A program made the translations under genes and the position numbers. The notes under the pieces were generated by a model. That model was not told the DNA's origin, searched no databases, and worked only from the letters and a program-made list of their open reading frames with translations. From Ailanthus altissimus (taxonomy: Eukaryota > Streptophyta > Magnoliopsida > Sapindales > Simaroubaceae): a stretch of DNA of 64,000 nucleotides. The stretch covers positions 14,332,001-14,396,000 of the forward strand of contig OX327697.1 of assembly GCA_946807835.1 (NCBI GenBank), read 5' to 3'. Below, piece after piece: positions 35,740 through 62,640 of the stretch (the first letter of the stretch is position 1; each line of letters opens with the position of its first letter).

Positions 35740-38700
35740 ACACTTTCCAATGAATTATATGATGCTTATTCAATATATAAAGAGGCACATAACATTTGGG
35801 GCACAACTAATGAAAAAATATATCATTGAAGATGCTGGTGGCCAAAAGTATATTGTTGCAAATTTCTTAGATTTTAAAATATCTAAAGAAAAAGATGTAA
35901 CATCTTAAATTCATGACTTTCACCTAATGATTAATGATTTAAGGAATGAGGGTATTATTATCTATAACCTTTTTTATTAGTTGCTTAATTGAAAAATTAC
36001 CAGAATCTTAAAAAGATTACAAGCATAAAAAGAAACATTTAAAGTTGGATGATACTATAGTGCATATTAGAATTAAAGAAAAGAATAGCTAATAGGAGAA
36101 CAATGAGAAGGGCAAGAAAATTGTTTATAAAGCTAACTTGGTTGAAAATAATTATAATCCAAGTGAGAAGTATCCTAAAACCACAAACAAATCATACCTT
36201 AAGAGTTCAAAGTCCTCATTCAAAAAGAAAAGTAATTGTTTATTTATGGTAAGGGTAGTCATTTTGTTTATCAGTGTAAATACAGGAAAAATGATAAAAA
36301 GGAAAATAATAAAACTCTTAAAGCCAATTTGGTTGAGGGAGATGATGTAATAGTCGATGTTGTGATTTTTCAAGTGAACATGGTTACAAATAGCAATAAA
36401 AAGTAGGTTATGGACTCTGGAGCCACAAGACACATATGTGTTGATAAGAGTGTATTCTATGACTATGTTCAATTAAGAGAATGAGAAGAACAAGTTTATC
36501 TTGGTGATTCTTATTCTACACATGTAGTTGAAAAAGGAAGGTTCTTCTTAAGTTAACTCCTAAAAAATCTCTTGCTTTGAATAATGTATTACATGTTCCA
36601 AATAATCTCATTTTTATATTTATGCTTAGTAAGGCAAATTGTCAAGATCTCATTTGAAGGAGACAAAGTTGTAATGACTAAGTATAGGACATTCACTAGA
36701 AAAGGGATATTGTTTTAACGATTTGTTCAAACTCAATGTACTTGATACAATTATTATTAATGAAAGAACTTTTTTAATTAATATTGTTGAGTCCTTTAAT
36801 TTATGGCATGATAAAGTTGATCACTTAAATTATCTTTATTTAAAGAAAATGAAAAGAGTTGATTTACTTTATAATATGAACTTAGAGAATGTTCATAAAT
36901 GTGATGTATGTGTGGAAGGAAAGTCCATAAAGAAAAATTGTAAACTAATAATTCTTAAAGAAATTGAATTACTCCGTTTAAAACATAGTGACCTTGGTGA
37001 TCTTAAAGATGTCATGACCACGAGAGGAAAAATGTTTTACAAAACTTTTATAGATGATTTCTTAAGATATACCAAAATAAATCTATTGAGAAATAAAAAT
37101 GAGTCATATAATAAATTCTTAATTTATAAATTAGAAGTGAGAATCAAGTTGGAAAGAAAATCAAAAGGTTAAGAACTTATCGACGAGGAGATATGTGTCT
37201 AAAATGTTTAATTCCTATTGTGAGGACAATGTAATTATACATGAAGTCATACCTCCATATTCTTCTGAATCAAATGAGATAGCTAAAAGAAAAAATAGAA
37301 CTCTAAAGGACATGATGAATTATATTTTGATACATTCTAGCGCACCTATGAACTTTGGGGGTGCAATACTTATTGCTTGTCATATATAAAATAGAATACC
37401 ATACAAAAAAAATTAGTATTACATCTTATGAATTATAAAGAGGCCATGAGTCTAATATATCATATCTCAAAGTGTGGAGGTGTCTTGTTAAGGTCTTAAT
37501 TTTTTATCTTAAAAGAAAAAGGATGGGATCTAAAACAGTTGATTGTATGTTTATAAGTTATGCCCAGATTAATGCTACATATAGATTCTTGGTATTAGAA
37601 AATACCATTGATTTATTTGATGCAAATAACATAATAAAATCTAAAAATGCTTCTTTCAGACTATATTTCCTAAGAAAACCAAATTGAAAAAACACATTGA
37701 CTCTTTTAGAAGTACATGATGATCTTCCAAAAAGTTCTAATAATGAATTGAGAAGAAGTAAAAGAATAAGGAAAGCCATAAAATTTGTTAATGATTTCTA
37801 TGTCTTTCTTATAGAAGAGAACCATTAAATATTTAGAAAGGCCATATCCTCTCATGATGCTCCTTTTTGGAGAGACTATTAATGATAAAATCAACTCCAT
37901 CATGAGTAATTATTTATGAAAAATTATTGATTTGCCTTTTGAAACCAAGCCTATTGGTTGTAAATAGATCTTCAAAAGGAAGATAAGGGATAATGGTTCA
38001 TTTGAGAAATATAAGGCAAGATTGATTGTCAAAGAGTTCACATAAAAGAAAGATTTAGATTACTTTGATACTTATGATCTTTGTCAACTAAGTTTGATAT
38101 GAAAGATATGAGAGAAGCTGATGTTATTCTTGGGATTAAGATAATGAGAACATCTAATGGTTTCACCTTAACCCAAGAATATTGTGTAGATAAATTCTTG
38201 AAGAAGTTTGGGTATGTTACATGTAAATCGGTGATAACACCTTATAAGGCTACTATTAAACTTTGTAAGAATATTGAGTATACTGATAATCAGATTTGTT
38301 ATGCCCAATTAATTGATAGTTTCATGTATTTAATGAATAATATTAAGCCTGATATAACATTTGTTATAAGGAGACTGAGTAGATATACTCAAAATTTGAG
38401 AAAAAAGCATTAGAGTGTCTTAGATAGACTTGCAAAATATTTAATAAGCACTAAGAATTACAGACTCACTTATAGTAGATCACAACCTATGCTAGAAGGT
38501 TATTGTGATGCAAATTAGATCTCTAAATCTAATAAGATTAAGTCTACTAGTGGATTTGTGTTCACCTTGGCTGGAGGTGTTGTGTATTGGAAATTCACTA
38601 TATAGATATATATAGCTTGATTTACAATGGAGTCTGAGTTGATAAGTTTAAAAAAGACTTGTTCAAAATTAAGTGGTTGAGAATACTCATAACTGATCTT

Positions 38701-45728: not shown

Positions 45729-46259
45729 TGTTGAAGGATATTATTAATGGAGGACATTCCATTTAGGCCTTGGTAATCTTAAAAGAAATTATTTCAGCAG
45801 CCATTTTAGACTTTACTGTATTCCAACAACCATTTTAGACATTCCTTTGTTGTATTCCAATAGCCACTTTAAACCAACAACCATTTTAGACTTTGCATTA
45901 TTGTATTATTTTGAATTTTACTTGTTCTTGATTTTTCATATACACTTTTCACATTTGTAACTTGATCTTAATGGTCTTTGTATAAACCATGAGATTAAGA
46001 GTATGGGCATTCAATAATTTGATTAAGAAAATTCTCTTTGGTTCTTTTAGAACTATTTGTACTTATCGAAATAATTTCTGTAGTGTTCTCCTTTGACTTA
46101 TCATTCAATCCTTTATAATTGATTGTGGCATCTTCATTATACTAAAGTTCTTGTTTCATTATATGCAATGGGTCATAGTTTCATATAAATCTATTCCTAG
46201 GCGGTCTTAGGTCTTTCTTGATCCACAACTTTCTTAATTTCTTGGTGTGGATCTTATTA
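45729..46259 (+). repeat. LTR of chromovirus-like element D (about 531 bp)
   Basis: Ends GGATCTTATTA directly before a decayed primer site; the last about 210 bp match 49,976-50,181. The start at TGTTGAAGG is a best guess. The U3 part has three direct repeats around CAACCATTTTAGAC (45,799-45,895). Confidence 0.6.
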
Positions 46260-47034: not shown

Positions 47035-49663
47035 AACCTAGGGAAATGAAAGTTGAAGATGAAGATTATTATGGGGGATGGTTTTGGTGAAGAAAATGAA
47101 CGGGATTTAATTATTAACAATAAGGGATATGGTGGGTGATTTAGAGAACCTAGGAATCAGGAAGATAATAACTTGTGTAGTATTAAGATTAAAATTCTAT
47201 TGTTTTAAGGCAAAAACGATCCTGAAGCTTGCCTAAAGTGGGAGAAGAAAGTAGAAATAGCATTTGATTGTCACAATTATTTCTAGCTTAAAAAAGGTAA
47301 AATTGAGCCATTGAAAATTTTGATTATACGATTGTTTGGTGGGATCAACTAGTGTTAAATAGAAAGCGAAATAAAGAGCGTCCAATAAAGATGTAGGAGG
47401 AAATGAAAATCGTGATGAGGAGACTGTTTGTTCCAAGCTATTACTACTGTGAATTATACCAAAAATTATAAAGTCTTACACAAGGTAATTAAAGTGTAAA
47501 GGATTATTATAAGAAGATGAAAATCGCTACGATCCGAGCAAATGTAGAGGAAGATCGAGAGGTTACTATAGCTAGATTTTTGATTGGTTTGAACTGAAAA
47601 ATTGCTAATTCGATGGAATTGTAACATTATATGGAGTTGAAAGATATAGTGCACATGGCTATCAAAATTGAGAACCAACTCAAGAGGAGTGGCAACAGTA
47701 CATGGCAAAACCCTAACTCAGGTTGATAATGCAGGGAACATTTTATGAAGAAATATGAGAAACAAGCCATAACTAAGCCCAAAATCGAGCAAAAATAAAA
47801 AGCAACCAGTTATAGAAATCAAGGTAAATCTGATTCTTTCACAACTTAAAATTGTGGCATTAAGTGTTTAAAATACCATAGTATGGGTCACATAGTGAGC
47901 CAATGTCCAAACAAAAGAGTTAAGATATTGCGAGATAATGGTGAGATTAAATTTGATGACAAAGAAGATAACTAATCTATGCCACAATTAGAGGATGTTG
48001 TTGATGATGAGGAATACGCTGCCTAAGGTGAATTATTTGTTACAAAGAGTGCTCTAAGTATACAAGTCAAAGAAGATGATGAAGTGTAGCGAGAAAACAT
48101 CTTTCATACTAGATGCCACATGCAAAACAAGGTATGTAATGTGATTATTAATAGAGATAGTTGTACTAATATTGCTAGCACTACAATTGTGAAGAAATTA
48201 GGGCTGCCAATAATTAAACATCCCCGGCCGTACAAATTGCAATGACTCAATGATAGTAGTAAGGTGAGGGTTACTAAACACGTATTAGTTTTCTTCCGCA
48301 TCGAAAAATATGAAGATGAAGTTTTATGTGATGTAGTTCCATGTCAGTTGAACACTTGTTACTAGGCCAACCAGGGCAATTGGATCGGCGTGTTAAGCAC
48401 GACGGTTTCACTAATAAATACTTATTTATACTTAATCAAAGGATAATCACTCTAGTCCATTTATTACCAAAACAGGTCTATGAAGATCAAGTGAGGTTAC
48501 AAAAGAGAGTGATAAAAAAAAGAGTTAGAAAAATAAAACAAGTGAAAATCAAAAAGAGAAAAAAGAGGTCGAAAAAAATGAGAGAGAAAACAAGAGGACA
48601 GATTCGGCCATTGAGAGAAAAGCAGAGAGAAAAATAAATTTTTATGCAAAAGCGAGTGAAATAAAAAGAGCAATATTTTTAAATTAGCGAATGATTGTAC
48701 TTTTGTATAAAAAGACGTATTTAAACACTAACCAACTTGACACGTCTTTGCTTAGCTCAATTGTTTCTCTTTTGTAGAAGTTTGATTATGTCTTTACTGA
48801 GAAGGTTCCATATAATTTACCTTATATCGAGGAATTAAACATCAAATCAATTTCATGCTTGATGCTTCTATTTCAAATTGACCAACCTATCAAAATAATC
48901 CCGAGGAGGTAAAAGAGCTACAAAGGTAGGTTAGTGATTTGATATAAAATGGGTATGTAAGGGAAAGTATGAGTCCATGCTTCATGCTAGTAATTTGGGT
49001 TCCTAAAAGGGATGGATCATGGAGAATGTATGTTGATTGCCGAGTAATAAACAATATAATGGTAGAGTATCATCATCTTATTCCTCGCTTAGATGATATA
49101 TTAATGAACTGCATGGTGCTTATGTATTTTCTAAGATTGATTTAAAGAGTGGGTATCATCAAATAAGAATGAAAAAGCGTGATGAATGGAAAACTACTTT
49201 TAAAATAAAATATAGTTTATATGAATGGTTAGTTATGCCATTTGGATTAACTAACGCACCAAGTACCTTTATGTAATTAATGAACCATTTCTTACGTGTA
49301 TTTAAAATTCAGTTTTGGATGTACTTAGAAAAGAGAGGTTATTTGATAACTTAAAAAAGTACACCTTTTGTATTGATAAGCTTATGTCTTTTAGTTTTTT
49401 TGTGAGTGCACAAGGAATACAAGTTAATAAAGAGAAGGTCCGCGTAATTCAAGAATGGTTGAGTCCCAGAGTGTAGGTCATATTCATAGTTTTCATAAAC
49501 TCGCTAGTTTTAATAAGAGATTTGTGAAAGACTTTAGTAGCATCATCGTACCATTTACCAAAGTTATTAAGAAGAACATTGGATTTAAATTAGAAGATGA
49601 ACAAGAGAAGGCATTTCAACTAATTAAGGAAAATTTAACTCATACCTATTTACTTACTTTGCC

Positions 49664-49975: not shown

Positions 49976-50181
49976 ATTGAACTTATCGGAACAATTTTTG
50001 TGACATTCTCCTTCGATTTATCAATCAATCATTTTATAATTGATTGTGGTGTCTTCATTATACCATGGTTCTTGCTTCAATATAAGCAACGGGTCACAGT
50101 TTCATATAAAGTTATTCCTAGATAATCTTGGAGTCTTTCTTAATCCATAACTTTCTCAATTTCTTGGTATGGATCGTATCA
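49976..50181 (+). repeat. Truncated 3' LTR of element D
   Basis: Matches 46,052-46,259 (GATTGTGGTGTCTTCATTAT, CAACGGGTCACAGTTTCATA, ending GGATCGTATCA). The U3 side is missing. At 50,182 the sequence passes into the FAR1-type pseudogene. Confidence 0.8.
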
Positions 50182-50194
50182 AATGGTCATCAAT

Positions 50195-50804
50195 CCCTCC
50201 GTTTTTTTTTGCTAATAAGTTTGAACACATTAATTGTACATATCATACTTGTGTCTTCTTCGTACTATTTTTAAGTGCATAGTCATAATAGACATGCCAT
50301 TAACGGACTAAAAATTATCACATGCCTATGTGTTTCTTTGTCTGTCTAACATCATGTCCATCTATATAACAAACGCGTAAAACTTTACTTTCTTATTCAC
50401 AAACTAATTTATGTATGCTTTTCCCACCTCTGTGTGCTTCTCATACCAGTAAGGAATATATCATGTAGGAATATCTCTACCCATAAATGACAATCTTCAT
50501 AAATTTTGTTCACCCATTCATTATTATAGAGGTTAAATTTCTCTACCATGTCCTACCACTTATGTAGAATTTCTCCTCTAACTCATGCATGAATATACAC
50601 TCGTTAAAATCCTAAGTGAAATTTTTGTTAGACATATTAGTTTAAGCATTCATTTCCAAGTGCCAACAACATAGCCAGTGAACCCGATTCAAGTAGAACC
50701 TTGTTGATCCATTCGTATAACCCTATCACCATAAGTCAGCATAACTCTAGGCTTCTTACCATAAATTGCCTCTATAAACGTTTCTAGCAACCACTTATAG
50801 GTGT
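50195..50804 (-). pseudogene. FAR1/MULE transposase relic, C-terminal segment
   Basis: Minus strand from 50,804: TYKWLLETFIEAIYGKKPRV, then TYGDRV (usually TDxD, catalytic Asp changed to Tyr), VEKFNLYNNEWVNKIYED, MRSTQRWE and NKKVKFYAFV; near 50,260 SVNGMSIMTMHLKIV, and VFKLIS just before 50,195. These are the MULE transposase core and following region of FAR1/FHY3-related proteins. It continues without a gap at 62,347 across the Athila-like insertion. Confidence 0.82.
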
Positions 50805-52237
50805 TGACACTTCCAGAATATAGGAGTTTATTTCCAAGTGCAGGATTGTCGAAGTAATAAATAACCTGGTAAGAATAGGGTCGATCCACAGAGAAGTAAA
50901 ATTAAAATTACAAACTATAAATACTTTAAAGACAATTAATGCAGTATAAGATGTTTGCAAATATAAATTCAATTAACCAATTCAAATAAAAGCTAAGGTT
51001 AGAGGGATCCACTCTTAGCATAAGAAGTATTAATATATTTAACTCTTTTTATAACTCAATTGAAATCCTCACACAAAGGAGGTTCCAACCGGAAGATATA
51101 ATAATTAAAGTTCATCACCATTTATATATTAACTAGTATTTATTTCTTTCAATTATTATACACCAAATCTTATAAATGGGTTCAAGTATTTATTATGCCA
51201 ATCTTTATATTTGTTTACAATAAATCAAGATTATCACTTTACAAGAAAGGGTAAATACGCCAAATCTTGTAAATGGTTTCAAGAATTCATTGTTCCAAGT
51301 ATAAAAATTGTCTATAATAAATCAAGAGGCACCACTTTAGAAAAAGGTGTATTAATATTATAAAAAAAATAAATACATCATATAAATTTGCATAACTTAA
51401 GAATGAAGCATTAAATTCATGAATAATAATTAAGTATATCTTATTACCTTGTCAAGAGTTTTACGCTTTCACCTTAGCATAAATAAAATTACTTAGACAT
51501 AATAAAACTAAAGAAAAAGAAAAGAAATGGAAGAAGAGATAACATGACTTTACAATAGTAAACAAGGGAAATAATATTACAAAGAGATAATAATAAAGAT
51601 AAGTATTTTAAACTAAAATCTAGCTCTTTTATTACATTTTTTTTGGGCATAAACATGCTACCTATTTATAGAAAAACATGGATAAATCGAGACTAATGAA
51701 GAGGGAACCACTTGGATGATAAAAGTCAAGAATGGTGGTAAATAATTTACATTGATTATCATTAAGGTACTCACTTGATTATCCAATTGGGAATTAATGT
51801 GATCCGAATTAGCTGTCACTCAAAACATAAAAGTTATAGATAAGTCTCTTGTCTTTCCAAATTGAGTTGTCTCATATGTATTAGATACGTATTTCTATCG
51901 TTATAGGCTAAATACTGATGACTGTTCTGATTGGGCCTGTACTACAGATCAGTTCTGTTCTATGCCATTTTTACCCTCTAAACACTCAAATTTCAAAGGC
52001 TTTATGAAATATAATATGTTATCCCATTAAGTCAGATCTTCACAGGATAAAGAATTACTCCAATTGGAATCTTAGGAAGAAAGTTATGCCTATTTTACCG
52101 AACCTGCCACAAAACAGTTATAAAGCTAATTAGGTACAATATTGTAAACATACATAAGTTAAGGGGGTTAAAGACACTAGTAATATAAAATAATGATATA
52201 AAAAACTTATTAAATATGTAATTTCAAGTGTTCATCA
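50805..52237 (-). repeat. 3' LTR of element E (1,433 bp)
   Basis: TATA box TATAAATA on the minus strand at 51,670-51,663. Slightly longer than the 5' LTR because of an extra about 60 bp near 51,300-51,370. By-eye identity about 92%. Confidence 0.93.
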
Positions 52238-52262
52238 CACCCTCCAACCAGCTTATTGCTAG
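52238..52262 (-). promoter_or_regulatory. Polypurine tract of element E
   Basis: Minus strand AGCTGGTTGGAGGGTG immediately before the LTR start; it is preceded by CTAGGGACTAGCAATA, a common neighbour in this clade. Confidence 0.75.
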
Positions 52263-53622
52263 TCCCTAGCAGTTCAAGCATAAATAAAATTTGAACACTA
52301 TCTAAGTATTTCAAACAAAACGTCAGTTCAAGATCACAATCACTATAAGGGTTATTTCAATCATAACTTCTAAAATTATGTGTGTGTGTATGTGAATTAA
52401 GCCTAAGCCAAAGCCTTCTTACCACAAACCAAACATATATAGCCTTGAAAATTATTTTCAAGTAAAAGCCTCAACTCTAAATCCTCACAGGTGAATAACG
52501 TGTTAAATGGGTTAGGAATTCACTCATAGAGTTGGAAAACAGATAATCGCTTAAGAAAAGGTTACATTTAAGGATAAACAAACAAATTAACATTGATCTA
52601 AAGATAAGAAAATAAATTATTTAGAGTCAAACTATTCTTTTCACATGCTTGCTTCAGGACTTTAATTATTTTATGCGAATCTTACGAATAAAGAGTCCGG
52701 TGATAAAATTGATTCCTAATGACTTTTGTCTTCTATAATTGAACGAAGACTTTATTGAATTGAATTGACTTATTTTTTTTATACTATTTTTTTTTGTGTT
52801 TTTTTGTATTTTTTTAAAGACATAAGGAATTATTACAAAGAGCAATTTATCACCATAATACTTTTTCAAAATTTTTATTTTTTTATTTTTTTATTATCCT
52901 TCAGCTAAGCAACCAAATCATTTCTTATCCCAAATAATGTCATTTCAGACAAAAATTAACAATTTCAAAAGATCAATGAAAGTTCGTAAGCTATTATCTC
53001 AAATTTCTCCACTTACTCACAAAAGATTTGTGAGTTTTGAAAAGAATATATACTTAAACATGAAATGTTTCTTGACTATATATATTTAATCATCCATTTT
53101 ACCACAAGATTTAGTATTGTGCTCAAAAAATAATTTTGAAAGTTATTCTTTAGTAACCTAGATAGAAAAAGTGATTTAAAATAAATAATTTTGAAATCAT
53201 AGTAAAATAAACTTATTTACGCAAGAGTTATCAAAAACTTAAGCAACAAACAAATATACGTAAAATGCATTAAAAATAAACTAATTAGAATGTGTTTCAA
53301 AAGTTTAATAATGTACTATTTATTTTGCCATTCTAGAACTAGAATACTTCTCAAGAACGCATAAATAAACATTTTACTCACGCTATTTATGATGAACATG
53401 TTTTAGAGAACAAAGTGATGATAAAAAAAATATAAATAACACTAATATTATATATCAACTATTCTACCCCCAACCAGATTGAGACATTGTTCTCAATGTC
53501 AAAATATAGAAAGAGTAAAGTATAGAAGATATTACCTAAAACATTTTTTTATTAAAAATTAAACCTACAACAAAATAAAACAAGCCACACAAAATGATTA
53601 AAAATATATAAAAGTAGATAGG
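52263..53622 (-). other. 3' noncoding region of element E
   Basis: AT-rich with long T/A runs (52,760-52,900). Holds the TTGAGAACAATGT/TTGGGGG motif near 53,470-53,505. No coding signature. Confidence 0.7.
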
Positions 53623-54292
53623 CTATAGACGAAGCGTCAAATTTATCTTGCGTTTCTTTTCACTGTCATCAGTATACCAATCTATCTGACTTATTGTTGG
53701 ATCAGATAGAGGTGTAAAAGCTTGTAGTTCATCGAGTAACTGATCAACAGTTGAAGCAGAAATAAGGATCTATCGTGCTGCAGATGAGACGAATTATTTT
53801 TCCACTGCATAATCAAGAAAAGATAACAACCCATTATAAAAATCATCAATATTTAACAAACCAATGAGTTTTTTTTATGGATTTACAATTGTTCCCATGA
53901 GACAATTTAAAAAATTTTCTCCAAAGTTTCGAAACCTCCAAGTAGAGCTATGAAGGCATCAGCATTCTGAAGCGTAAAAGACATTCACTCATGCATTGAT
54001 GATACCTGTAACTCATCCCCAATTATTTTTCCTACAATATTTTCAACAGCTAGAGCCTTTGGTATGATACCCAAAACTCGACTGCCTTTATTTTGTGTAG
54101 CTATTGCCACACATCCCATTAATCCAAGACTGCCTCCCCTATATACTAAATGAATATTTTGCTCAGCTAACACCTTACCAAGGTTTCTGTTACTTCTACA
54201 AACTTTTTAATTTTTTCAAGGCTAGATCCATAGAAGACACAAATTTTTATGAATTTACGAGTTGATGTTCCTTCCATTATTACACTCACCAT
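53623..54292 (-). pseudogene. Intronless LOG-family (cytokinin riboside 5'-monophosphate phosphoribohydrolase) gene copy
   Basis: LOG enzymes release active cytokinin base from its ribotide in the cytosol and nucleus. On the minus strand the copy starts ATG at 54,292 (second in-frame Met at 54,277) and reads KICVFYGSS, VLAEQNIHLVYRGGSLGLMG, GSRVLGIIPKALAVENI, DELQVSSMHE, NADAFIALLGGFETLEK. After frameshifts come SVSTVDQLLDELQAF-like and KKRKINLTLRL with a TAG at 53,623-53,625. The span, about 223 codons, and both ends match a full LOG protein, with no introns although plant LOG genes have several. The catalytic PGGYGTxEE is changed to LGGFETLEK, the nucleotide-site GGGS to RGGS, and MHER to MHE-stop, so it is inactive. 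It lies in sense orientation between integrase and the 3' LTR. Confidence 0.87.
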
Positions 54293-54342
54293 CTCTCTTG
54301 AATGATTTTGAGTTTGTATAAAGATGTAAAAATAATGCAATG

Positions 54343-54350
54343 TATTTATA
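54343..54350 (-). promoter_or_regulatory. TATA box upstream of the LOG-like copy
   Basis: CTCTATAAATACATTGC on the minus strand, about 51-58 bp before the first ATG, followed by an ACAAACTCAAAATC leader typical of plant 5' UTRs. This suggests that the captured segment included, or acquired, a promoter. Confidence 0.6.
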
Positions 54351-54603
54351 GAGCCAAAAGGTGTTGTAAAGTTAAGTTACATGGGCTGTTGGCTTAAAAT
54401 ACAAAATTTTCAATACCTTTTTACCAAATTTCAAATTGTTAGCTGGAAAAGTCACATGAGTGGTTGGTTGGTTGTTGGAAAAGATGTTTGAGTTTGAAAT
54501 GAAACATTTAAAAAAGACAGCTATAGTAATATATGAATAAGTAGTTGTGATTGTGGCTCATATCGTCCTCTGATTTTACGTACAGTAATGTTTTAAACAC
54601 CCT

Positions 54604-55152
54604 CTATGGGTCGGGGATAGGCTCCCCATCTAATTTTCTTATAAATTGACAAATAGGGTCTTTTAAAGTCATATTTTCGAAACTGTGCCACTCATGTTCT
54701 TTTAGCAATATGTCCCATAATTCAAAAATTATAATATACACAAATCCACTAGGATGCGTCTCAAGAGTCAATAAGATATCATCTAAAGACTCCTTATTCA
54801 GGCCATCCTTAATGAACCTAATTTTATCTTCGCGATTTACTGACACCATTCTTAAAGTGCGACAACGTGTGTTGCAAGTCATGCATCCATACTTGTAACA
54901 AACGCTTAACTATTTTACTCTTCGTTTTTTTACAAAAGATCTTTTACCTAAGCCAGGCATGTAGAAAATTAATGAGTCTAAAAATTCACCTATCAATCAA
55001 ACTTTTACTTCAATTAACCAACGTAAATCAACAGGTATATTCATAATCATTAATAACCTTAATCTTTCACATCTTGCTTGGTAAATTTTCTTTAAGAAAT
55101 TTTGAGGCAATGAAGGAAAACGCTTTTTCAAATTCTTTAGAATGTCATCCAT
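54604..55152 (-). pseudogene. Unrecognised 182-codon frame in element E, two in-frame stops
   Basis: Starting MDDILKNLKKRFPSLPQNF, one frame runs to a TAG after LDGEPIPDP, broken only by stops after IEVKV and after KKRRVK. A Cys cluster CYKYGC-MTC-NTRC lies in the middle (residues about 87-98), followed by VSVNREDKIRFIKDG, LLTLETHPSGFVY and FELWDILLKEHEWHSFE. It could be a captured host gene or an element-specific ORF in the env position; I do not recognise the family. A splice-acceptor-like TTTTTTTAACTTGCAG lies upstream (about 55,293), where spliced ORFs of such elements begin. Its good preservation compared with pol is notable. Confidence 0.6.
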
Positions 55153-55351
55153 TTTTTTTAGAAATGGGGAAGAAGAGAAGGTATCAGTAATTATGGAAAA
55201 CTGACAAAACCGACTTGAAATGTCACAGAGTACCATTATCCGCTACTTAACCGGGGTGCAAAATAAAACTTTAACAAAAATATTAAATTAACCTGCAAGT
55301 TAAAAAAAGGTTAGAAGAAGAATAAATATATATAAATATGTAAAACAAAGA

Positions 55352-56560
55352 TTAATTGGTCTTATAATAAAGATTCGATAGGGACACAAATTCTTTATAA
55401 AAAACTTGATTTTCTAGAAATAGTTTGAGTTTTGGCCTATTTACCTTAAACACATTCCCATTTCTAAGATTTTCAATGTCAATTATTCCATAAGGGTACA
55501 CATGTTTCACAATAAAAGGGTCACTCCATTTTGATCTTAATTTTTCAGGGAATATGTGAAGTTGAGAATTATAAAGCAAAACCTTCTGACTAATGTCAAA
55601 TGTTTTTCTCTGAATTTTTTTATCATGAAAAGCTTTTATTTTAGCTTTATGAAATTTTGAATTCTCATATGCATCATTTCTTAATTCTTCAAGTTCATTT
55701 ATTTGTAATTTACGTATGTGTCTAGCAGAATCAAGATTTGCATTGAAAGTTTTAATGGCCCAGTAGGCTTTATGCTCAAGATCCACAGGTAAGTGACAAG
55801 GTTTTTCATAAATTATCCTATAAGGAGACCTACCCAATAAAGTTTTAAAAGCAGTTCTATAAACCCACAATGCATCATTTAGTCTTAAAAACCAATCTTT
55901 GTGATTTGGATTTATAGTTTTTTTTTAAAATTTATTTTATCTCTCTATTTGCTAATTCAACTTGTCCACTTGTCTGAGGATAATAAGGGGTGGCAACCTT
56001 ATAAGTAATACCATATTTTTTTATTAATATTTTTAATGACCTATTACAAAAATGCTTACCCCCATCATTTATAATGGCTCGGGGGATTCCAAATCGACTT
56101 AAGATATTTTCTTTCAAAAATTTTATGACTGTTTTATGGGCATTATTTTGACATGGAATAGCCTCAATCCATTTTGAGACATAATCTAATGCAACTAAGA
56201 TATACATAAATCCAAATGATAGCGAAAATGGTCCCATGAAATCTATCCCCCAACAATCAAAGATTTCAATTACAAGAATGAGGTTCAAAGGCATCATGTT
56301 TCATTTTGAAATTAATCCCAACTTTTGATAATTTTCACACGTTATTCAAAATACATATGTATCTTTAAATAAAGTGGGCCAATAAAATCTACACTGCAAG
56401 ATTTTTACAGCTATTTTCTTTGATGAGAAATGTCCCCCACATGCTTCAGAATGACAAAATTTAATAACATTACTTACCTTATTATCGGGTATGCATCTTC
56501 AAAATATTTGGTCATGACAATATTTGAAGAGATAAGAATCATCCCAATAAAACTTTCTTA
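55352..56560 (-). pseudogene. Integrase of element E
   Basis: HHCC region near 56,330-56,460 (HSEACGGHFSSKK, QCRFYWPTLFKD, second Cys of CxxC changed to Tyr). The core at 55,932-56,297 shows [18 protein letters not shown] and [10 protein letters not shown], so the D,D,E triad is kept. The long C-terminal frame 55,352-55,870 starts [17 protein letters not shown] and ends with a [17 protein letters not shown] block. Two stops lie between core and tail (55,871-55,931). Confidence 0.9.
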
Positions 56561-56612
56561 CCTTAGTTAAAAATTTCTTTTTGTCTTGAGCATTCCATTG
56601 AGGTGGCTTTTC

Positions 56613-57835
56613 TCATGTTACAAGAAAATTAACAATATTAGCATACCAAGGCATTGTAACAGTAGAAAATAAAAATTCACCAGGAAAAGAATCATTAGTA
56701 GGTGTTATTTCTATTGATGAATCTGGTGCGAGTCTTGATAAGTGATCTGTAATAACATTCCCAGCACCCTTTTTATCCTTGATAGTGATAATAAATTCTT
56801 GAAGCAATAGAATCCATTGAATTAGTCTTGGTTTTGCATCCTATTTTAACATTAAGTACCTTACAACAGCATGGTTAGTAAACACAACAGTTGAAGAACC
56901 AATTAAGTAAGAATGAAATTTGTCTAATATAAATATTACAACAAGTAGTTCTTTTTCAGTTGTTGTGTAATTCATTTGTGCACTGTTTAAAGTTTTACTT
57001 GCGTAATAAATTACATAGGATTTAACTTCCTTTCTTTGTCCTAATACAACACCAACATTGTAGTCATTAGCATCACACATGAGCTCTAAGGTAAAAACCA
57101 GTTAGGAGATTGTATGATAGGAGCAGATGTTAAGAGGTTAATTAATTTTTTAAATGAATTTTGACACTCTTGAGTCCATTCAAATGATACATCTTTTACT
57201 AAGAGGTTTAGATATAGCACAAATGTTTTTGATGAACCTCCTATAGAATCCAGCATGTCCTAAAAAGGATCAGACTTCTCTGACTATTTTTAGTGGAGGC
57301 AAATGTGTAATGAGTTCAAATTTTGCCTTATCCACTTCAATTCCTTCAGAAGACACTACATGTACCAAAAAAATTCTAGAAGTAATCATATAATGACATT
57401 TTTTCCAATTCAACACAAGACTCTTTTCTTCACATCTTTTTAAGACATTTTCTAAGTTTTCAAGACAATTATCAAAAGAATTTCCAAACACAGTTAAATA
57501 ATCCATGAAAACTTCTAAATAATGCTCAACCATGTCACTACAAATGCTTAACATACATCTCTAAAATGTTGCTGGGGCATTACAAAGTCCAAACGACATT
57601 CTTTTAAGCAAAGGTCTCAAAAGGGCATGTGAATGTAGTCTTTTCTTGGTCCTCTAGTGCTATAGGAATTTGATAATAGCCAGAATAACCATCTAGAAAG
57701 TAATAGTAAGGATGTCCTGCTACTCTTTCTATAATTTGATTAAGGAATGGTAAAGGAAAATGGTCTTTTCTAGTGGTCGAGTTTAACTTCTTATAATCTA
57801 TGCACATCCTCTAATTAGATGAGACTCAAGTTGAT
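56613..57835 (-). pseudogene. Reverse transcriptase and RNase H of element E
   Basis: RT block 57,807-57,604: MCIDYKKLNSTTRKDHFPLP, IERVAGHPYYYFLDGYSGY. Then MSFGLCNAPATF after a stop. In 57,554-57,270 the palm motif reads VFMDYLTVFG: the second catalytic Asp of FMDD is Tyr (codon at 57,498-57,500). RNase H begins MCDANDYNVGVVLGQRK (57,080) with YYASKTLNSAQMNYTTTEKE and continues through HLSRLAPDSS near 56,740. A substituted palm Asp means RT is dead even without the stops. Confidence 0.9.
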
Positions 57836-58329
57836 ATTAACTCACATTTTTCATTTTTAATGACTGTGATTCCAGATTTTTTTGGTACTACCTGAGTAAG
57901 ACTTACCCACTTACTATTTGAGATAAGATAGATGATTCATACTTCAAGTAATTTAAGAGCTTCAGCTCTCACTACCTCTTTCATATGTGGATTTAATCTC
58001 TTTTGAAGTTGTTGGGAATTTTTGGCATTATCCTCTAAATGTATTCTATGTGTGTAAATCAAAGAATTAATGTCGTTTATATCTTTTAAAGTCTACCCAA
58101 TTACATTTTTATGCATTTTCAATAATTCAATCAACTTACCTTCTTGTTCGCTTGTGAGTGTAGAAGAGATTACCACCGGCTAAGTTTGTTTCTCTTTAAG
58201 AAATGTATATTTCAATTCTTCAGGCAGAGGTTTTAACTCTAATTTTGAAATTTCGTTCTGTTTGTCCTCATTTTCTCCTAATTCTTCAAACTTTGATTTC
58301 TATCATTTATTTTCAATCACTTGTGCACA

Positions 58330-58850
58330 GTCAAGTAAAGAACATATGTCAGAGATTTTAGGATCTAATTGTATAGTTGACTCAAATGAATTTATTAAAT
58401 ACATTTCTAAGGGATCGGTAAAACTCTATTTTTGAATATGATCCTCCACAATCGTTTCAATCATGTCGATTTCTTCACTTTCATCCTCCCCCTCATGTGG
58501 TTGCTTACACATATTGAAAACATTAAGCTTAAGTGTCATATTTTCAAATGAAAGCTTCATTACTCCATTCCTGTAATTAATCAAAGTGTCAGAAGTTACT
58601 AAAAATGGACGACCCAAAATAACAAGTATCGGATTACATCCTTTAACAGGTTTTGTGTCTAAGTCAATAAAATCCACAAGATATATGAATTTATCAACTT
58701 GAACTAAAACATCTTTCACTGTCCTTCTTGGTACTTTTATTGATCTATCAATAAGCAAAAGCGTTACTGTAGTAAATTCACATTAGCACCAAGATCAAGT
58801 AAGGTTTGTTCAATTTTATGACTTACAATAAATCATGAAATTATAGGATA
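58330..58850 (-). pseudogene. Protease region of element E
   Basis: LLDLGANVNLL near 58,810-58,780 keeps the DxG-type aspartic protease motif. After a stop, the 110-codon frame 58,758-58,426 has KVPRRTVKDVLVQVDKF, VILGRPFLVTSDTLINYRNG and LSFENMTLKLNVFNMCKQP, a hallmark of Athila elements. Confidence 0.88.
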
Positions 58851-58899
58851 ACTAGGGTCTTTATATTTCAAAGCATTATTGTTCTAAAGAATGACACTT

Positions 58900-60337
58900 A
58901 CTTGTTCAGCTAAAAATGCTTTCTTTTTCACATGATCCGCTTTAAAGTTTTGAAAAAGACCTAGTTATAAAGACCCTAAAAATGGTTGCCCACACTTACT
59001 TTTTGAAATCTTCAAATAGGTAAAAAGTGATAACCGCTTTAACTTAATCCATGTGTTGCCTTTCTAAAGTATATGCATTTGAGTTGTGTTGTCATTTGGG
59101 GTTTGGTTGTGGTTGAGAAGGAATTTTTCTTTCTCATGAATGTTCAGTATGGATGCAAATTTAGTAAGAGTATCTTTCAAATCAGCAAAAGTTTGAACAT
59201 TTTGAGAATTAATAGACTATTGCTTTTCAATGAATGTATGCAAAGATTTTTAAAGATTATTCCTAGGAGGTAGGACATATGGTGCATAAGCTTGATGGTT
59301 GTGACAATTTTGGTGTAGTTGGAAAGGTGGTTGTGAAGCCTGTGCTTGAGTGTCATTCCTCCAACTAAAATTTGGGTGATTTCTCCATCCAAGATTGTAG
59401 TTTTGTGAATATGGGTTATTGTTTGACCGGTTGAACGTGTTTAGAACATTGACTTGTTCATGGAGACATTCTCTAAATGCAGGCAAAGTTGGGCAACCAT
59501 TGGTAGAGTGGTCATGGGTTTCACAAATGTAACACACAATTTCTTGAACAAATTTTATTTGACCACTCTTTTACATTTCTAAGGTTTCGACTTTTCTAGA
59601 TAAGATGCTAATTTGGCTTGAAGGTGCCTCACAAGTACTAGCAGTGTCCTAATTTTGAGCATTTTCTGCTAATAAGTCTAGATAATTCATTGCCTCTTTT
59701 GGGTCTTTGTCCTTAAATGTTCCATTACACATCATTTCTACCATTTGCCTAACTTGGGGTGTTAAGCCCTTATAGAAATTTGAGACTAGTCTCCATGTTT
59801 CAAAGTTATGACGGGGACAGGTATTAAGTAATTCTTTATACATTTTCCAACATTAGTAAAGGGTCTCTCCTAGTTTTTGGGCAAAAGTGGTAATTTTTCT
59901 TTTGAAAGAATTTGTTCTATGGGAAGGAAATTTTTTTTCAGGAATTGTTGTTGCATCTCATCCCATAAAGAAATGGATCCTGGCCTAAGGTTTTGTAGCC
60001 ATGTTTTAGCTTTATCTTTTAAAGAAAAAGGGAAAAGCTTAAGTCAAATTGTATTCATGCTATAATTTTAGTCATTATACGTGTTACACACTTCTTCAAA
60101 TTCTCTTAGATGTAGATAAGGGTTCTCTGCATCTAATTCATAAAAAGTGGGTAAAAATTTGATAATGTCTGGCTTAAAATTAAAATGTGTTGCATCCGGA
60201 GGAAAAATTAAGCAAGATGGTGCACCGGTTCATGTAGGGTTCATGTAATCTCTAAGTATTCTAGGTCGGTTATGGTCATTATGTTAGGACTGATTGTCCT
60301 CTGGGTCTATGAGTCCTTCAATTTGATTTTCGGTCAT
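58900..60337 (-). pseudogene. Gag of element E
   Basis: Starts MTENQIEGLIDPEDNQS at 60,337 (first Met after the leader), then a stop. Core block near 60,030-59,900 (LKLFPFSLKDKAKTWL and LRPGSISLWDEM). A frame at 59,843-59,649 has LVSNFYKGLTPQVRQMVE. An intact CX2CX4HX4C zinc knuckle, CYICETHDHSTNGC, lies at about 59,534-59,490, followed by Asn/Pro/Gln-rich sequence. Several stops. Confidence 0.88.
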
Positions 60338-60643
60338 GGTGTTAATTGGTGAAAAATGAGAAGATGAAGAAAAATTCAATAAATTGTCAAAGGAAGTTCT
60401 GAAATTACCTTTCACCAAACGATGAGAATTAGGATCTTGAAACCAACCGCTTATATAAAGAAATAAAATAAAATACAATAACAATAAATAATATAAATAA
60501 ATAAATAAAATATTAAACATAGGTAAATAAGATAAGTAAAACTAAAATTAAAATAAAATAAAGATAAATAATTAGAAGTTAGATTAATAATATTAGATTA
60601 GTTAATAATATATATTATATAATAAAAAGTTAAGAAATAAAGA

Positions 60644-60931
60644 GTAGGAGGCTTAACCTTCCATAAAAATAAAAAGTGAATAATAAATCAAATAAAACAA
60701 GTTAGGAGGTTTAGCCTTCTATGAAAATAAAAAGCGAATAATAAATAAACTAAAGTAAGTTATGAAGTTTAGCTTTACATAAAAAAAAAAGTGAATAATA
60801 AATAAAGTAAAGCACGTTAGGAGATTTAGCCTTCCAAGAAAATAAAATTCGAATAATAAATAAAGTAAAGCAAGTTAAGAGGCTTAGTCTCCCATGAAAA
60901 TAAAACAAACAAACAAACAAACAAACAAATA
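60644..60931 (-). repeat. Five tandem 57-58 bp units in the leader of element E
   Basis: Units start at 60,644, 60,701, 60,759, 60,816 and 60,874 on the plus strand, each like GTTAGGAGGTTTAGCCTTCC followed by TGAAAATAAAA(A/G)GCGAATAATAAATAAA. The array lies between the primer site and gag and ends next to a CAAA repeat (60,903-60,930). Confidence 0.9.
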
Positions 60932-60954
60932 AAATGTTAATTTCACTTCCTCTA

Positions 60955-60971
60955 CAACGGCGCCAAAAACT
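60955..60971 (-). promoter_or_regulatory. Primer-binding site of element E, tRNA-Asp type
   Basis: Minus strand TTTTTGGCGCCGTTGTAG directly after the 5' LTR. TGGCGCCGTTG is the usual Athila/Tat primer site; the last bases differ from the canonical GCCGG. Confidence 0.85.
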
Positions 60972-62342
60972 TGACACTTCTAGAATATAGGAGTTTATTC
61001 CCAAGTGCAGGATTGTCAAAGTAATAAATAACCCGATGAGAATGAGGTCGATCCACAGGGAAGTAGAATTAAAATTACAAGCTATAAATACTTTAAAGAC
61101 AATTAATGCAGTATAAGATATTTGCAAATATAAATTTAATTAACCAATTCAAATAAAAGTTAAGGTTAGGGGGATCCACTCTTGGCATAAAAAGTATGAA
61201 TATATTTAACTCTTTTTATAACTTAATTGGAATCCTCACACAAAAGAGGTTCCAACCGGAAGATATAACAATTAAAAGTTCATCACCATTTATATATTAA
61301 CTAGCATTTATTTCTTTCAATTATTATATACCAAATCTTACAAATGGGTTCAAGTATTTATTATGTCAATCGTTATATTTGTTTACAATAAATCAAGATT
61401 CTCACTTTACAAGAAAGGGTATATACGCCAAATCTTGTAAATGGTTTCAAGAATTCATTGTGCCAAGTATAAAAAATAAATACATCATATATAAATTTGC
61501 ATAACTTAAGAATGAAGCATTAAATTTATGAATAAGAGTTAAGTATATCTTATTACCTTGTCAAGAGTTTCACGCTTTCACCTTAGTATAAATAAAATTA
61601 CTTAGACATAATAAAATTAAAGAAAAAGAAAAGAAATGAAAAAAGAGATAACATGATTTTACAATAGTAAACAAGAGAAATAATATTACAAAGAGATAAT
61701 ACAAAAAATAAGTATTTTGAACTAAAATCTAACTCTTTAATTACATTTTTTAGGTATAAACATGCTATTTATTTATAGAAAAATATGGAAAAATCCAGAC
61801 AAATGAAGAGGGAACCACTTGGATGATAAAAGTCAAGAATGGTGGCAAATAATTTACATTGATTATCATTAAGGCAGCTACTTGATTATCCAATTTAGAA
61901 TTGATGTGATTCGAATTAGCTGTCACTCAAAACATCAAAGTTATAGATAAGTTTCTTATCTTTCCAAATTGAGTTATCTCATATATATTAGATACGTATT
62001 TATATAGTTATAGGCCAAAAATTGATAACTATTTAGATTGGGCTTGTACTGCTGATTAGTTCTAATTTAGGCCATTTTCAACCTTTAAACACTCGAATTG
62101 CAAATGATTTGTGAATATAATATGTTAGCGCATTGAATTAGATCTTCACAGGATCAAGAATCACTCCAATTGGATTCTTAGGTAGAAAGTTATGCCCATT
62201 TTACCGAATTTACTACAAAACAGTTAAATGCTAATTAGGTACAATATTGTAAACATACATAAGTTAAGGGGGTTAAAGACACTAGTAATACAAAACAATG
62301 ATATAAAATCATTATTAAATATGTAATTTAAAGTGTTCATCA
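60972..62342 (-). repeat. 5' LTR of element E (1,371 bp)
   Basis: TATA box TATAAATA at 61,777-61,770 on the minus strand, equivalent to that in the other LTR. It ends next to the primer site. Confidence 0.93.
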
Positions 62343-62640
62343 GGTGTTTTCCATCTTCACTAATAATAAAGTAGACCTGAAAATAGTTGTTCGTTTATAA
62401 TGGTTCACCCTAAGGGACGACACGAATGGCTTGTTGTATGCTTTTGTCTGATATGTTTAATTGAAGGCCATAACATCACTAAAACAACAGTAGTTAGCCC
62501 GTAAGCCCCTATCATACCAAAACAAATCTGCTATATGTTATTTAAATATAGAGTGGATTTATAAAAGAAACCATGGTTTGTAACTCTCTTCCTCTTAATT
62601 GAAAGACAAAAGGTACAAAGTAACTGCATAAGATATACTT
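62343..62640 (-). pseudogene. FAR1/MULE transposase relic, N-terminal-side segment
   Basis: Minus strand reads FFYKSTLYLNN, DLFWYD, DVMAFN-stop-TYQTKAYNKPFV (first catalytic Asp now Asn) and VNHYKRTTIFRSTLLLVKME, ending NT at the insertion. The next residues, YKWLLETF, are at 50,800. This is the same pseudogene split by the Athila-like element. Confidence 0.8.

What the first reader, a model, noticed from the sequence alone, without database searches (positions are those of the whole stretch)
53623..54360. Intronless LOG cytokinin-enzyme gene carried inside an Athila-like retrotransposon, with its own TATA box
Seen directly: within the 11.5-kb element bounded by LTRs and the GGTGT duplication, downstream of integrase and in the same orientation, there is a full-span LOG-family copy (KICVFYGSS to INLTLRL-stop), free of introns, with a TATAAATA box about 50 bp upstream. 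Known: plant LOG genes have several introns and activate cytokinin; Athila elements normally carry only an env-like frame here. Inference: a processed LOG transcript was captured by the element, and a promoter was kept or acquired. This copy is dead (PGGYGT changed to LGGFET, stops), but sibling copies elsewhere could be intact and would make a mobile hormone-activation gene.
Basis: partly seen in the sequence, partly recalled or inferred. Interest (0 to 1): 0.85.

Follow-up and report, generated by a model that had tools for sequence, protein, structure and literature searches.

The report
Plant retrotransposon with virus-like and hormone genes
A decayed plant jumping gene carries a dead copy of a gene that activates the growth hormone cytokinin and, just before it, a relative of a silencing-suppressor gene of plant RNA viruses; relatives with full-length frames of either gene occur in several orders of flowering plants.

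Summary
In detail: a dead, intron-free, full-length LOG copy (54277-53623, minus) lies in an Athila-type LTR retrotransposon (50805-62342, GGTGT duplication). LOG domains in such elements are already in print (Citrus, Populus; PMC9289625, citing Steinbauerova 2011).

In a 43-row tree the 39 element-type LOGs form one clade (94/91, just short of the 95/80 mark) apart from the three ordinary plant LOGs included; 75 of 99 listed relatives of 195+ residues keep PGGxGTxxE. (2) Between integrase and LOG lies a second gene (55152-54604): a basic, cysteine-rich protein whose relatives match Pfam Carla_C4 (24 of 34 at E<=0.01, best 2e-7) and Viral_NABP (22 of 34, best 2.5e-8), families of carlavirus silencing suppressors. 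It adjoins LOG in gene models of Acer, Citrus, Rhamnella, Orobanche. Five literature searches (open PMC only) showed no report of it. (3) A relative, L029, has integrase, this gene and the downstream motif but no LOG.

Best reading: a decayed member of an old eudicot lineage with a two-gene 3' module. Host manipulation is inference; 10 of 11 readable joined models have an altered LOG active site.

The parts
50800..50804 (.). target-site duplication GGTGT (left copy)
50805..52237 (-). 3' LTR
   Evidence: 1254 of 1368 aligned bases identical to the other LTR, K2P 0.089
52238..52249 (-). polypurine-tract-like sequence abutting the 3' LTR (GGTTGGAGGGTG)
   Evidence: own reading
53465..53498 (-). 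motif CATTGAGAACAATG..GGTTGGGGGTA downstream of LOG; a like motif in L029 (2576-2610), where LOG is absent
53623..54277 (-). LOG pseudogene, intron-free, three frame pieces, internal stops, active-site motif altered
54343..54350 (-). TATAAATA in the LOG leader; the leader gives the same 20 residues in sibling P0112
   Evidence: not significant by itself
54535..54603 (-). conserved tail after the amber codon of the CRP-like gene (..SHNHNY)
54604..55152 (-). virus-CRP/NABP-like gene (pseudogene; one frame, two internal stops at 54997-54999 and 54910-54912), ends at TAG 54606-54604
   Evidence: the best relatives are 60-65% identical over 182-203 residues
55222..55256 (-). conserved non-coding block between integrase and the CRP-like gene
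   Evidence: alignment with L029
55352..55924 (-). integrase, C-terminal part
   Evidence: no Pfam match of its own
55932..56300 (-). integrase core (rve)
   Evidence: E 4.4e-15
57270..57560 (-). reverse transcriptase fragment
   Evidence: E 2.9e-5 (24.3 bits, below the curated cut-off 29.6)
58426..58782 (-). protease region fragment
   Evidence: match to P0165, which carries an aspartyl protease domain; no convincing Pfam match of its own
59250..59570 (-). gag fragment, by position and by similarity to Populus proteins P0155 and P0147
   Evidence: no Pfam match of its own
60955..60965 (-). primer-binding-site-like TGGCGCCGTTG next to the 5' LTR (Athila-type by recall)
   Evidence: own reading
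60972..62342 (-). 5' LTR
62343..62347 (.). target-site duplication GGTGT (right copy)

Best explanation
The window holds a decayed copy of an Athila-type LTR retrotransposon belonging to an old eudicot lineage that carries two extra genes after integrase: first a cysteine-rich, basic protein related to the nucleic-acid-binding silencing suppressors of carlaviruses (CRP/NABP), then an intron-free LOG gene for cytokinin activation. LOG most likely entered the lineage once, long ago, between the CRP-like gene and the conserved motif before the 3' LTR, and has been carried, altered and also lost since. Most likely mode of action (inferred): the CRP-like protein loosens silencing and/or acts on transcription, while LOG makes active cytokinin locally, together keeping the host cell in a dividing, meristem-like state in which the element can be expressed and reach the germ line. 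In this copy both genes are dead.
For: Shown: complete LTR element with LOG inside. CRP-like gene upstream of LOG on the same strand, best relatives 60-65% identical. Relatives match Viral_NABP and/or Carla_C4 above curated cut-offs in 6 of 10 scanned (P0125 34.1 bits vs 23; P0167 25.0 vs 20.9), and 22 and 24 of 34 members at E<=0.01. Linkage elsewhere: of 65 hits, 12 carry both CRP and LOG Pfam labels and 5 more (the query P0077 among them) carry a LOG label and match the CRP query, in Acer, Citrus, Rhamnella, Orobanche and Diplodiscus; three Citrus models join integrase and the CRP-like part, and Rhamnella P0183 reads integrase end, CRP end and LOG in one model. The Melia LOG model begins with residues matching this element's 5' internal leader. 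LOG tree: the 39 element-type rows together, 94/91; Paulownia, Rehmannia and Orobanche rows in one clade with two unnamed rows, 100/99. CRP-like gene between window and L029: dN 0.234, dS 0.708 over 180 codons, although the window copy is dead. L029 shows the LOG-less arrangement. Functions of viral CRPs (silencing suppression; CVB p12 as a transcription factor inducing hyperplasia): passages of PMC12172455.
Against: No function was tested. Of the 17 CRP-LOG gene models the LOG active site could be read in 11: it is intact in one (P0077, Acer) and altered in ten; the four readable Citrus models share the same kind of change. 24 of 99 LOG relatives lack PGGxGTxxE and only 49 of 99 keep both it and M[HQ]xR. 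Four of 10 CRP relatives scanned stay below both curated cut-offs, and 10 of 34 do not match Carla_C4 even at E<=0.01. The window CRP piece itself has no Pfam match; the AlphaFold model of a relative is poor (pLDDT 59); no real viral CRP was aligned. Only three ordinary plant LOGs were in the tree. In the CRP tree 15 of 54 inner branches are open and the window's place is unresolved. Gene models that join genes may be annotation merges. The host genome could not be searched.
Confidence: 0.7

Rival explanations
1. The LOG is a passenger only: a host gene transduced by the element with no role, kept by hitch-hiking or decaying at different speeds.
For: This copy is dead; 10 of 11 readable CRP-LOG gene models have an altered active site; 24 of 99 listed LOG relatives lack PGGxGTxxE; LOG is absent in L029.
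Against: Full-length frames persist between named rosid and lamiid proteins at 48-63% identity (25 of 30 pairs compared; P0014, the sixth protein set against the lamiids, has no named host), and 75 of 99 listed relatives keep PGGxGTxxE.
Confidence: 0.22
2. The LOG copy is a separate later insertion (processed pseudogene made by a LINE) that happened to land in this Athila copy.
For: Intron-free; cassette present here and absent in L029; 8-bp direct repeat AAATGTTT near the edges.
Against: Such a repeat is expected by chance (821 of 2000 shuffles, 920 of 2000 random window pairs); no poly-A (longest run 7); the same CRP-LOG order occurs in gene models of Acer, Citrus, Rhamnella and Orobanche; leader residues shared with P0112.
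Confidence: 0.03
3. LOG and the CRP-like gene were acquired independently and repeatedly by different Athila lineages, so the shared order reflects a favoured capture site, not descent.
For: LOG-bearing CRPs are scattered over the CRP tree, with LOG-less L029 among them, and several forks are open.
Against: The LOG tree shows one clade apart from the three ordinary LOGs included (94/91), with the named lamiid members together.
Confidence: 0.1

Closest known systems
LOG (YgdH domain) in Ty3/gypsy LTR retrotransposons of Citrus sinensis, C. clementina and, without their filter, Populus trichocarpa (PMC9289625, section 12 read; it cites Steinbauerova et al. 2011, not held; its abstract, recalled, mentions two Athila-like elements with similarity to LOGL4)
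   Same: LOG-related frame in a gypsy-type element
   Different: Section 12 and the passages seen do not mention a CRP-like neighbour, a single-clade origin, Malvales, Rosales or Lamiales for this domain, or a LOG-less arrangement; its supplement was not seen
Cysteine-rich/nucleic-acid-binding proteins of carlaviruses, allexiviruses and mandariviruses (Pfam PF01623, PF05515; PMC12172455, passages)
   Same: Pfam matches above cut-off in 6 of 10 relatives scanned; basic stretch followed by a small cysteine cluster
   Different: Carried by an LTR retrotransposon, about 185 residues, with its own conserved C-terminal half and a conserved tail after an amber codon
AlkB-like m6A demethylase domain in Phalaenopsis Ty3/gypsy elements (PMC9289625, section 12)
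   Same: Plant gypsy element that took up and kept an extra enzyme
   Different: Different enzyme and host group; in that paper found in two Phalaenopsis species only
Athila elements with env-like or other extra frames (recalled; PMC6317226 passages: Athila ORF-1 domain in 16% of Athila elements)
   Same: gag-pol order, extra frames 3' of integrase
   Different: Here the 3' genes are CRP-like and LOG; no other open frame of 90 residues or more lies between integrase and the 3' LTR; env-likeness as such was not tested

Membership tests
Athila lineage (Ty3/gypsy, OTA) | LTRs, target duplication, integrase downstream of reverse transcriptase | tested here: met
Athila lineage (Ty3/gypsy, OTA) | Athila-type primer-binding site (tRNA-Asp; recalled) | tested here: inconclusive
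   TGGCGCCGTTG next to the 5' LTR; compared with a recalled motif only
Athila lineage (Ty3/gypsy, OTA) | RT/integrase tree placing it in Athila and absence of the Tat aRH domain | not tested
   no reference set of lineage proteins fetched
LOG phosphoribohydrolase | family profile match over nearly full length | tested here: met
LOG phosphoribohydrolase | PGGxGTxxE active-site motif | tested here: not met
   window copy LGG.ET; 75 of 99 listed relatives of 195+ residues keep it. The window copy is a pseudogene of the family
Viral CRP/NABP (PF05515, PF01623) | profile match above curated cut-off | tested here: inconclusive
   met by 6 of 10 relatives scanned for at least one of the two (P0125, P0128, P0130, P0147, P0165, P0167), not by P0122, P0126, P0152, P0157; the window's own longest open piece had none at E<=1
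Viral CRP/NABP (PF05515, PF01623) | basic stretch plus cysteine cluster | tested here: met
   98 of the 182 proteins P0122-P0303 hold both patterns, fragments included; in the window one cysteine of the first pair is changed
Viral CRP/NABP (PF05515, PF01623) | RNA-silencing suppression | not testable with these tools
   needs an assay
Processed pseudogene of LINE type | poly-A and flanking target duplication | tested here: not met

The most novel reading that the evidence does not exclude
A plant retrotransposon lineage has for tens of millions of years carried a virus-like two-gene host-manipulation module: a protein of the kind with which RNA viruses suppress silencing and induce hyperplasia, and a cytokinin-activating enzyme. 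Together they would create a silencing-relaxed, dividing cell state that favours transposition, making this a mobile hormone gene and a genetic bridge between RNA viruses and LTR elements.
Probability: 0.28. Interest if true: 0.92.

Novelty: new variant of a known kind. Interest (0 to 1): 0.7.

Why it matters
Plant transposons often take up host gene pieces, but an extra gene kept as a full frame across plant orders is, by PMC9289625 and as far as I know, rare. Here the extra genes are a hormone-activating enzyme and a homologue of RNA-virus silencing suppressors, side by side. If the products are active, an LTR element would be acting on host growth and silencing the way a virus does, and the question whether plant retrotransposons encode silencing suppressors becomes directly testable with natural full-length proteins.

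Tried and rejected
Later LINE-type insertion: rejected (no poly-A; edge repeat at chance level; shared gene order). TATA box as sole proof of a promoter: rejected as not significant; the leader of P0112 is the better, still modest, support (residues compared, its DNA was not seen). PDB profile search of the CRP-like family: no match at E<=1. Viral-contig scans: nothing of this family; one search gave 28 distant LOG-like loci in viral contigs, not used. Plasmid tblastn of P0125: no match. A fold of the RNA around the amber codon of L029 was unremarkable (z -1.21, 22 of 200 shuffles at least as good). Rfam scan of the window: no match. The first dN/dS run on the CRP-like gene used a wrong frame in L029 and was replaced; the integrase figures stand. 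Alignment A4 was made but not used. Rows left out: the LOG tree used 39 of the 120 listed hits (P0118 and the LOG part of P0077 among them); the CRP tree used 56 of the 185 distinct proteins listed. The 120 listed LOG hits are the best of 179, the 120 listed hits the best of 780 at E<=10; viral CRPs, if among the rest, were not seen.

Literature: searches for the CRP-like family together with retrotransposons were no paper; one review in which the two words occur apart, passages seen; three papers, titles and abstract starts seen only. The library holds open PMC papers only. Searches were about LOG and extra frames.

Full report
What is there. The minus strand of 50805-62342 is an LTR retrotransposon with TG..CA ends, LTRs of 1433 and 1371 bp (1254 of 1368 aligned bases identical, K2P 0.089, about 3.4 to 6.4 million years with recalled rates of 1.3e-8 and 7e-9) and a GGTGT duplication. 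The integrase core gives E 4.4e-15 and a reverse-transcriptase fragment 2.9e-5, the latter below its curated cut-off; other gag-pol stretches match Populus, Citrus and Orobanche proteins. A primer-binding-like TGGCGCCGTTG follows the 5' LTR, which I recall as Athila-type; the lineage was not tested by a tree.

The LOG copy. From ATG 54277 to the TAG ending at 53623 the strand reads as a full LOG without room for introns, in three frame pieces with stops. It aligns with Arabidopsis At2g37210 over query residues 5-203 of 219 (E 6.2e-49) and with Pfam PF03641 at 8.6e-27. PGGxGTxxE is broken. The TATAAATA at 54350 is real but expected by chance in about one of five such stretches (434 of 2000 shuffles). 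A sibling protein fragment, P0112, happens to be read through the leader and gives the same 20 residues SINTLHYFYIFIQTQNHSRE as the window's translation from the TATA box to just before the start codon, so the leader is shared with at least one sibling.

Relatives. A search of 5.8 billion proteins gave 179 hits at E<=0.001, 120 listed. The nearest, P0001, is 80% identical and full length. The list is dominated by many-entry families of Reevesia, Orobanche (one cluster of 244 sequences), Paulownia and Xanthoceras and by unnamed records; I did not test for each hit whether it lies in an element. The Salvia entry P0118, named log1, groups with the Arabidopsis LOGs. Of 99 listed hits of 195 residues or more, 75 keep PGGxGTxxE, 61 keep M[HQ]xR and 49 both. 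A 43-row tree puts the 39 element-type rows, the window included, in one clade (94/91, just under the 95/80 mark for a starred branch) apart from AtLOG3, AtLOG8 and Salvia log1; Paulownia, Rehmannia and Orobanche rows sit together with two unnamed rows (100/99). I read this as one old capture before rosids and lamiids parted, with the caveat that only three ordinary plant LOGs were included.

The second gene. The gene models P0077 (Acer) and P0104 (Orobanche) have a piece before LOG that matches window 55056-54535 and 55062-54535. Searching with the piece of P0077 gave 65 proteins, most labelled PF01623 Carla_C4 and many PF05515 Viral_NABP. Scanned anew, 6 of 10 exceed a curated cut-off: P0125 scores 34.1 bits on Viral_NABP (cut-off 23), P0147 and P0167 25.1 and 25.0 on Carla_C4 (cut-off 20.9); P0122, P0126, P0152 and P0157 exceed neither. 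Over the 34 members of A2, 24 match Carla_C4 and 22 Viral_NABP at E<=0.01, best 2e-7 and 2.5e-8. The window copy runs from 55152 to a TAG at 54606-54604 in one frame with two internal stops; its best relatives are 60-65% identical. Its own longest open piece has no Pfam match, so the assignment rests on the relatives. A search with the core gave 780 hits at E<=10, 120 listed, among them Populus (one cluster of 74), Orobanche and Striga. Viral CRPs are described as silencing suppressors and pathogenicity factors, and CVB p12 as a transcription factor inducing hyperplasia (PMC12172455, passages).

Linkage. Of the 65 proteins, 12 carry both CRP and LOG Pfam labels and 5 more (the query P0077, P0104, P0121, P0172, P0183) carry a LOG label and match the CRP query; hosts are Acer, Citrus, Rhamnella, Orobanche and Diplodiscus. 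P0152, P0171 and P0176 (Citrus) join integrase to the CRP-like part, and P0183 (Rhamnella) reads from integrase through the CRP end into LOG. The Melia LOG model P0065 starts with residues matching this element's 5' internal leader at 60448-60389 (14 of 20 identical, E 3.8e-5). Such gene models may be annotation merges, but they show adjacency on the chromosome.

Against an active enzyme everywhere. In the 17 joined models the LOG active site could be read in 11: P0077 keeps PGGxGTxxE, the other ten do not (P0104, P0121, P0150, P0157, P0158, P0166, P0167, P0170, P0172, P0181). The four readable Citrus models share a GDL.TLEALIT-type change, the two Orobanche models P0167 and P0181 share PGGYDTLNE. 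Gene models that fuse neighbours may favour decayed copies, but a shared change may also mean that LOG took another role there. Stand-alone relatives fare better (75 of 99).

The empty site. A scan of genome contigs with A2 found one locus, L029, a 3330-bp contig binned into a bacterial MAG that reads as plant element DNA: integrase in an open frame 104-1594, full-length CRP-like gene 1787-2344, TAG, conserved tail, then CATTGAGGACAATG..GTTGGGGGGTA with no LOG between. Window 56947-54531 aligns with L029 3-2420 (70.7%), and 53541-53467 with 2533-2607 (75.3%); 989 bp in the window thus stand against 112 bp in L029. As LOG-bearing CRPs lie on several branches of the CRP tree and L029 among them (with 15 of 54 inner branches open), loss in L029 is as likely as a primary lack.

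Selection. Between window and L029 the CRP-like gene gives dN 0.234 and dS 0.708 (180 codons); the integrase C-terminal part gives 0.294 and 2.163 and the core dN 0.113 with saturated dS. So the CRP-like gene was under purifying selection for much of the separation. For LOG no second DNA copy was available; persistence of full frames at 48-63% identity between named rosid and lamiid proteins (25 of the 30 pairs compared) is the only evidence.

An amber codon. Of 52 proteins with the C-terminal CRP motif, 42 end exactly after it, and the 10 that go on have Y (4), W (1) or Q (5) at that codon, each one base from TAG, followed by a conserved tail ending in SHNHNY or close to it. Window and L029 both have TAG there; the 22 comparable tail codons give dN 0.132 and dS 0.677. 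This suggests leaky termination, or a conserved nucleic-acid element; two DNA copies cannot decide.

What is known. LOG (YgdH) domains in gypsy elements of Citrus and Populus are in print (PMC9289625, section 12 read, citing Steinbauerova 2011, which is not held). For Carla_C4, Viral_NABP or carlavirus CRPs together with retrotransposons, searches gave no paper, one unrelated review and three papers of which I saw titles and abstract starts. A 2026 review of gene capture in plants (PMC13317346) has no occurrence of cytokinin, Athila, YgdH or carlavirus in its main text.

Verdict. The new part is its neighbour and the age and breadth of the pair. That the pair acts on the host is inference.

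Noticed in passing
54606-54604 and 54603-54535; L029:2345-2416: Amber stop at a fixed place in the CRP-like gene, followed by a tail conserved as protein; 10 of 52 relatives have Y, W or Q there and read on, 42 stop. Possible programmed readthrough.
   Followed up: partly
55256-55222: Non-coding block CCCGGT.AAGT.GCGGATAA.GGTACTC.GTGAC between integrase and the CRP-like gene looks better conserved than its surroundings in the alignment with L029, with a TGCAG upstream in both; possibly a splice acceptor region.
   Followed up: no
60448-60389: The annotated LOG gene of Melia azedarach (P0065) begins with residues matching this element's 5' internal leader, as if LOG were expressed by splicing from the element's leader.
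   Followed up: partly
L029:1-3330: A contig binned as Candidatus Nomurabacteria reads as plant LTR-retrotransposon DNA, probably a contamination of that genome.
   Followed up: partly
P0157, P0158, P0166, P0170 (Citrus); P0167, P0181 (Orobanche): Altered LOG active sites that are shared within a host (GDL.TLEALIT in Citrus, PGGYDTLNE in Orobanche), perhaps LOGs that took another role.
   Followed up: no
36678-38413: Remains of a Ty1/copia element (gag_pre-integrs E 2e-10; RVT_2 fragment E 2.4e-7, just below its cut-off).
   Followed up: no
60608-60953: Tandem repeat of about 58 bp just inside the 5' LTR.
   Followed up: no
46112-46200 and 50033-50121; 49100-49324: Two 89-bp direct copies (87%) left of the element; 49100-49324 on the + strand weakly matches a Citrus element protein (35%), hinting at another gypsy remnant.
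   Followed up: no
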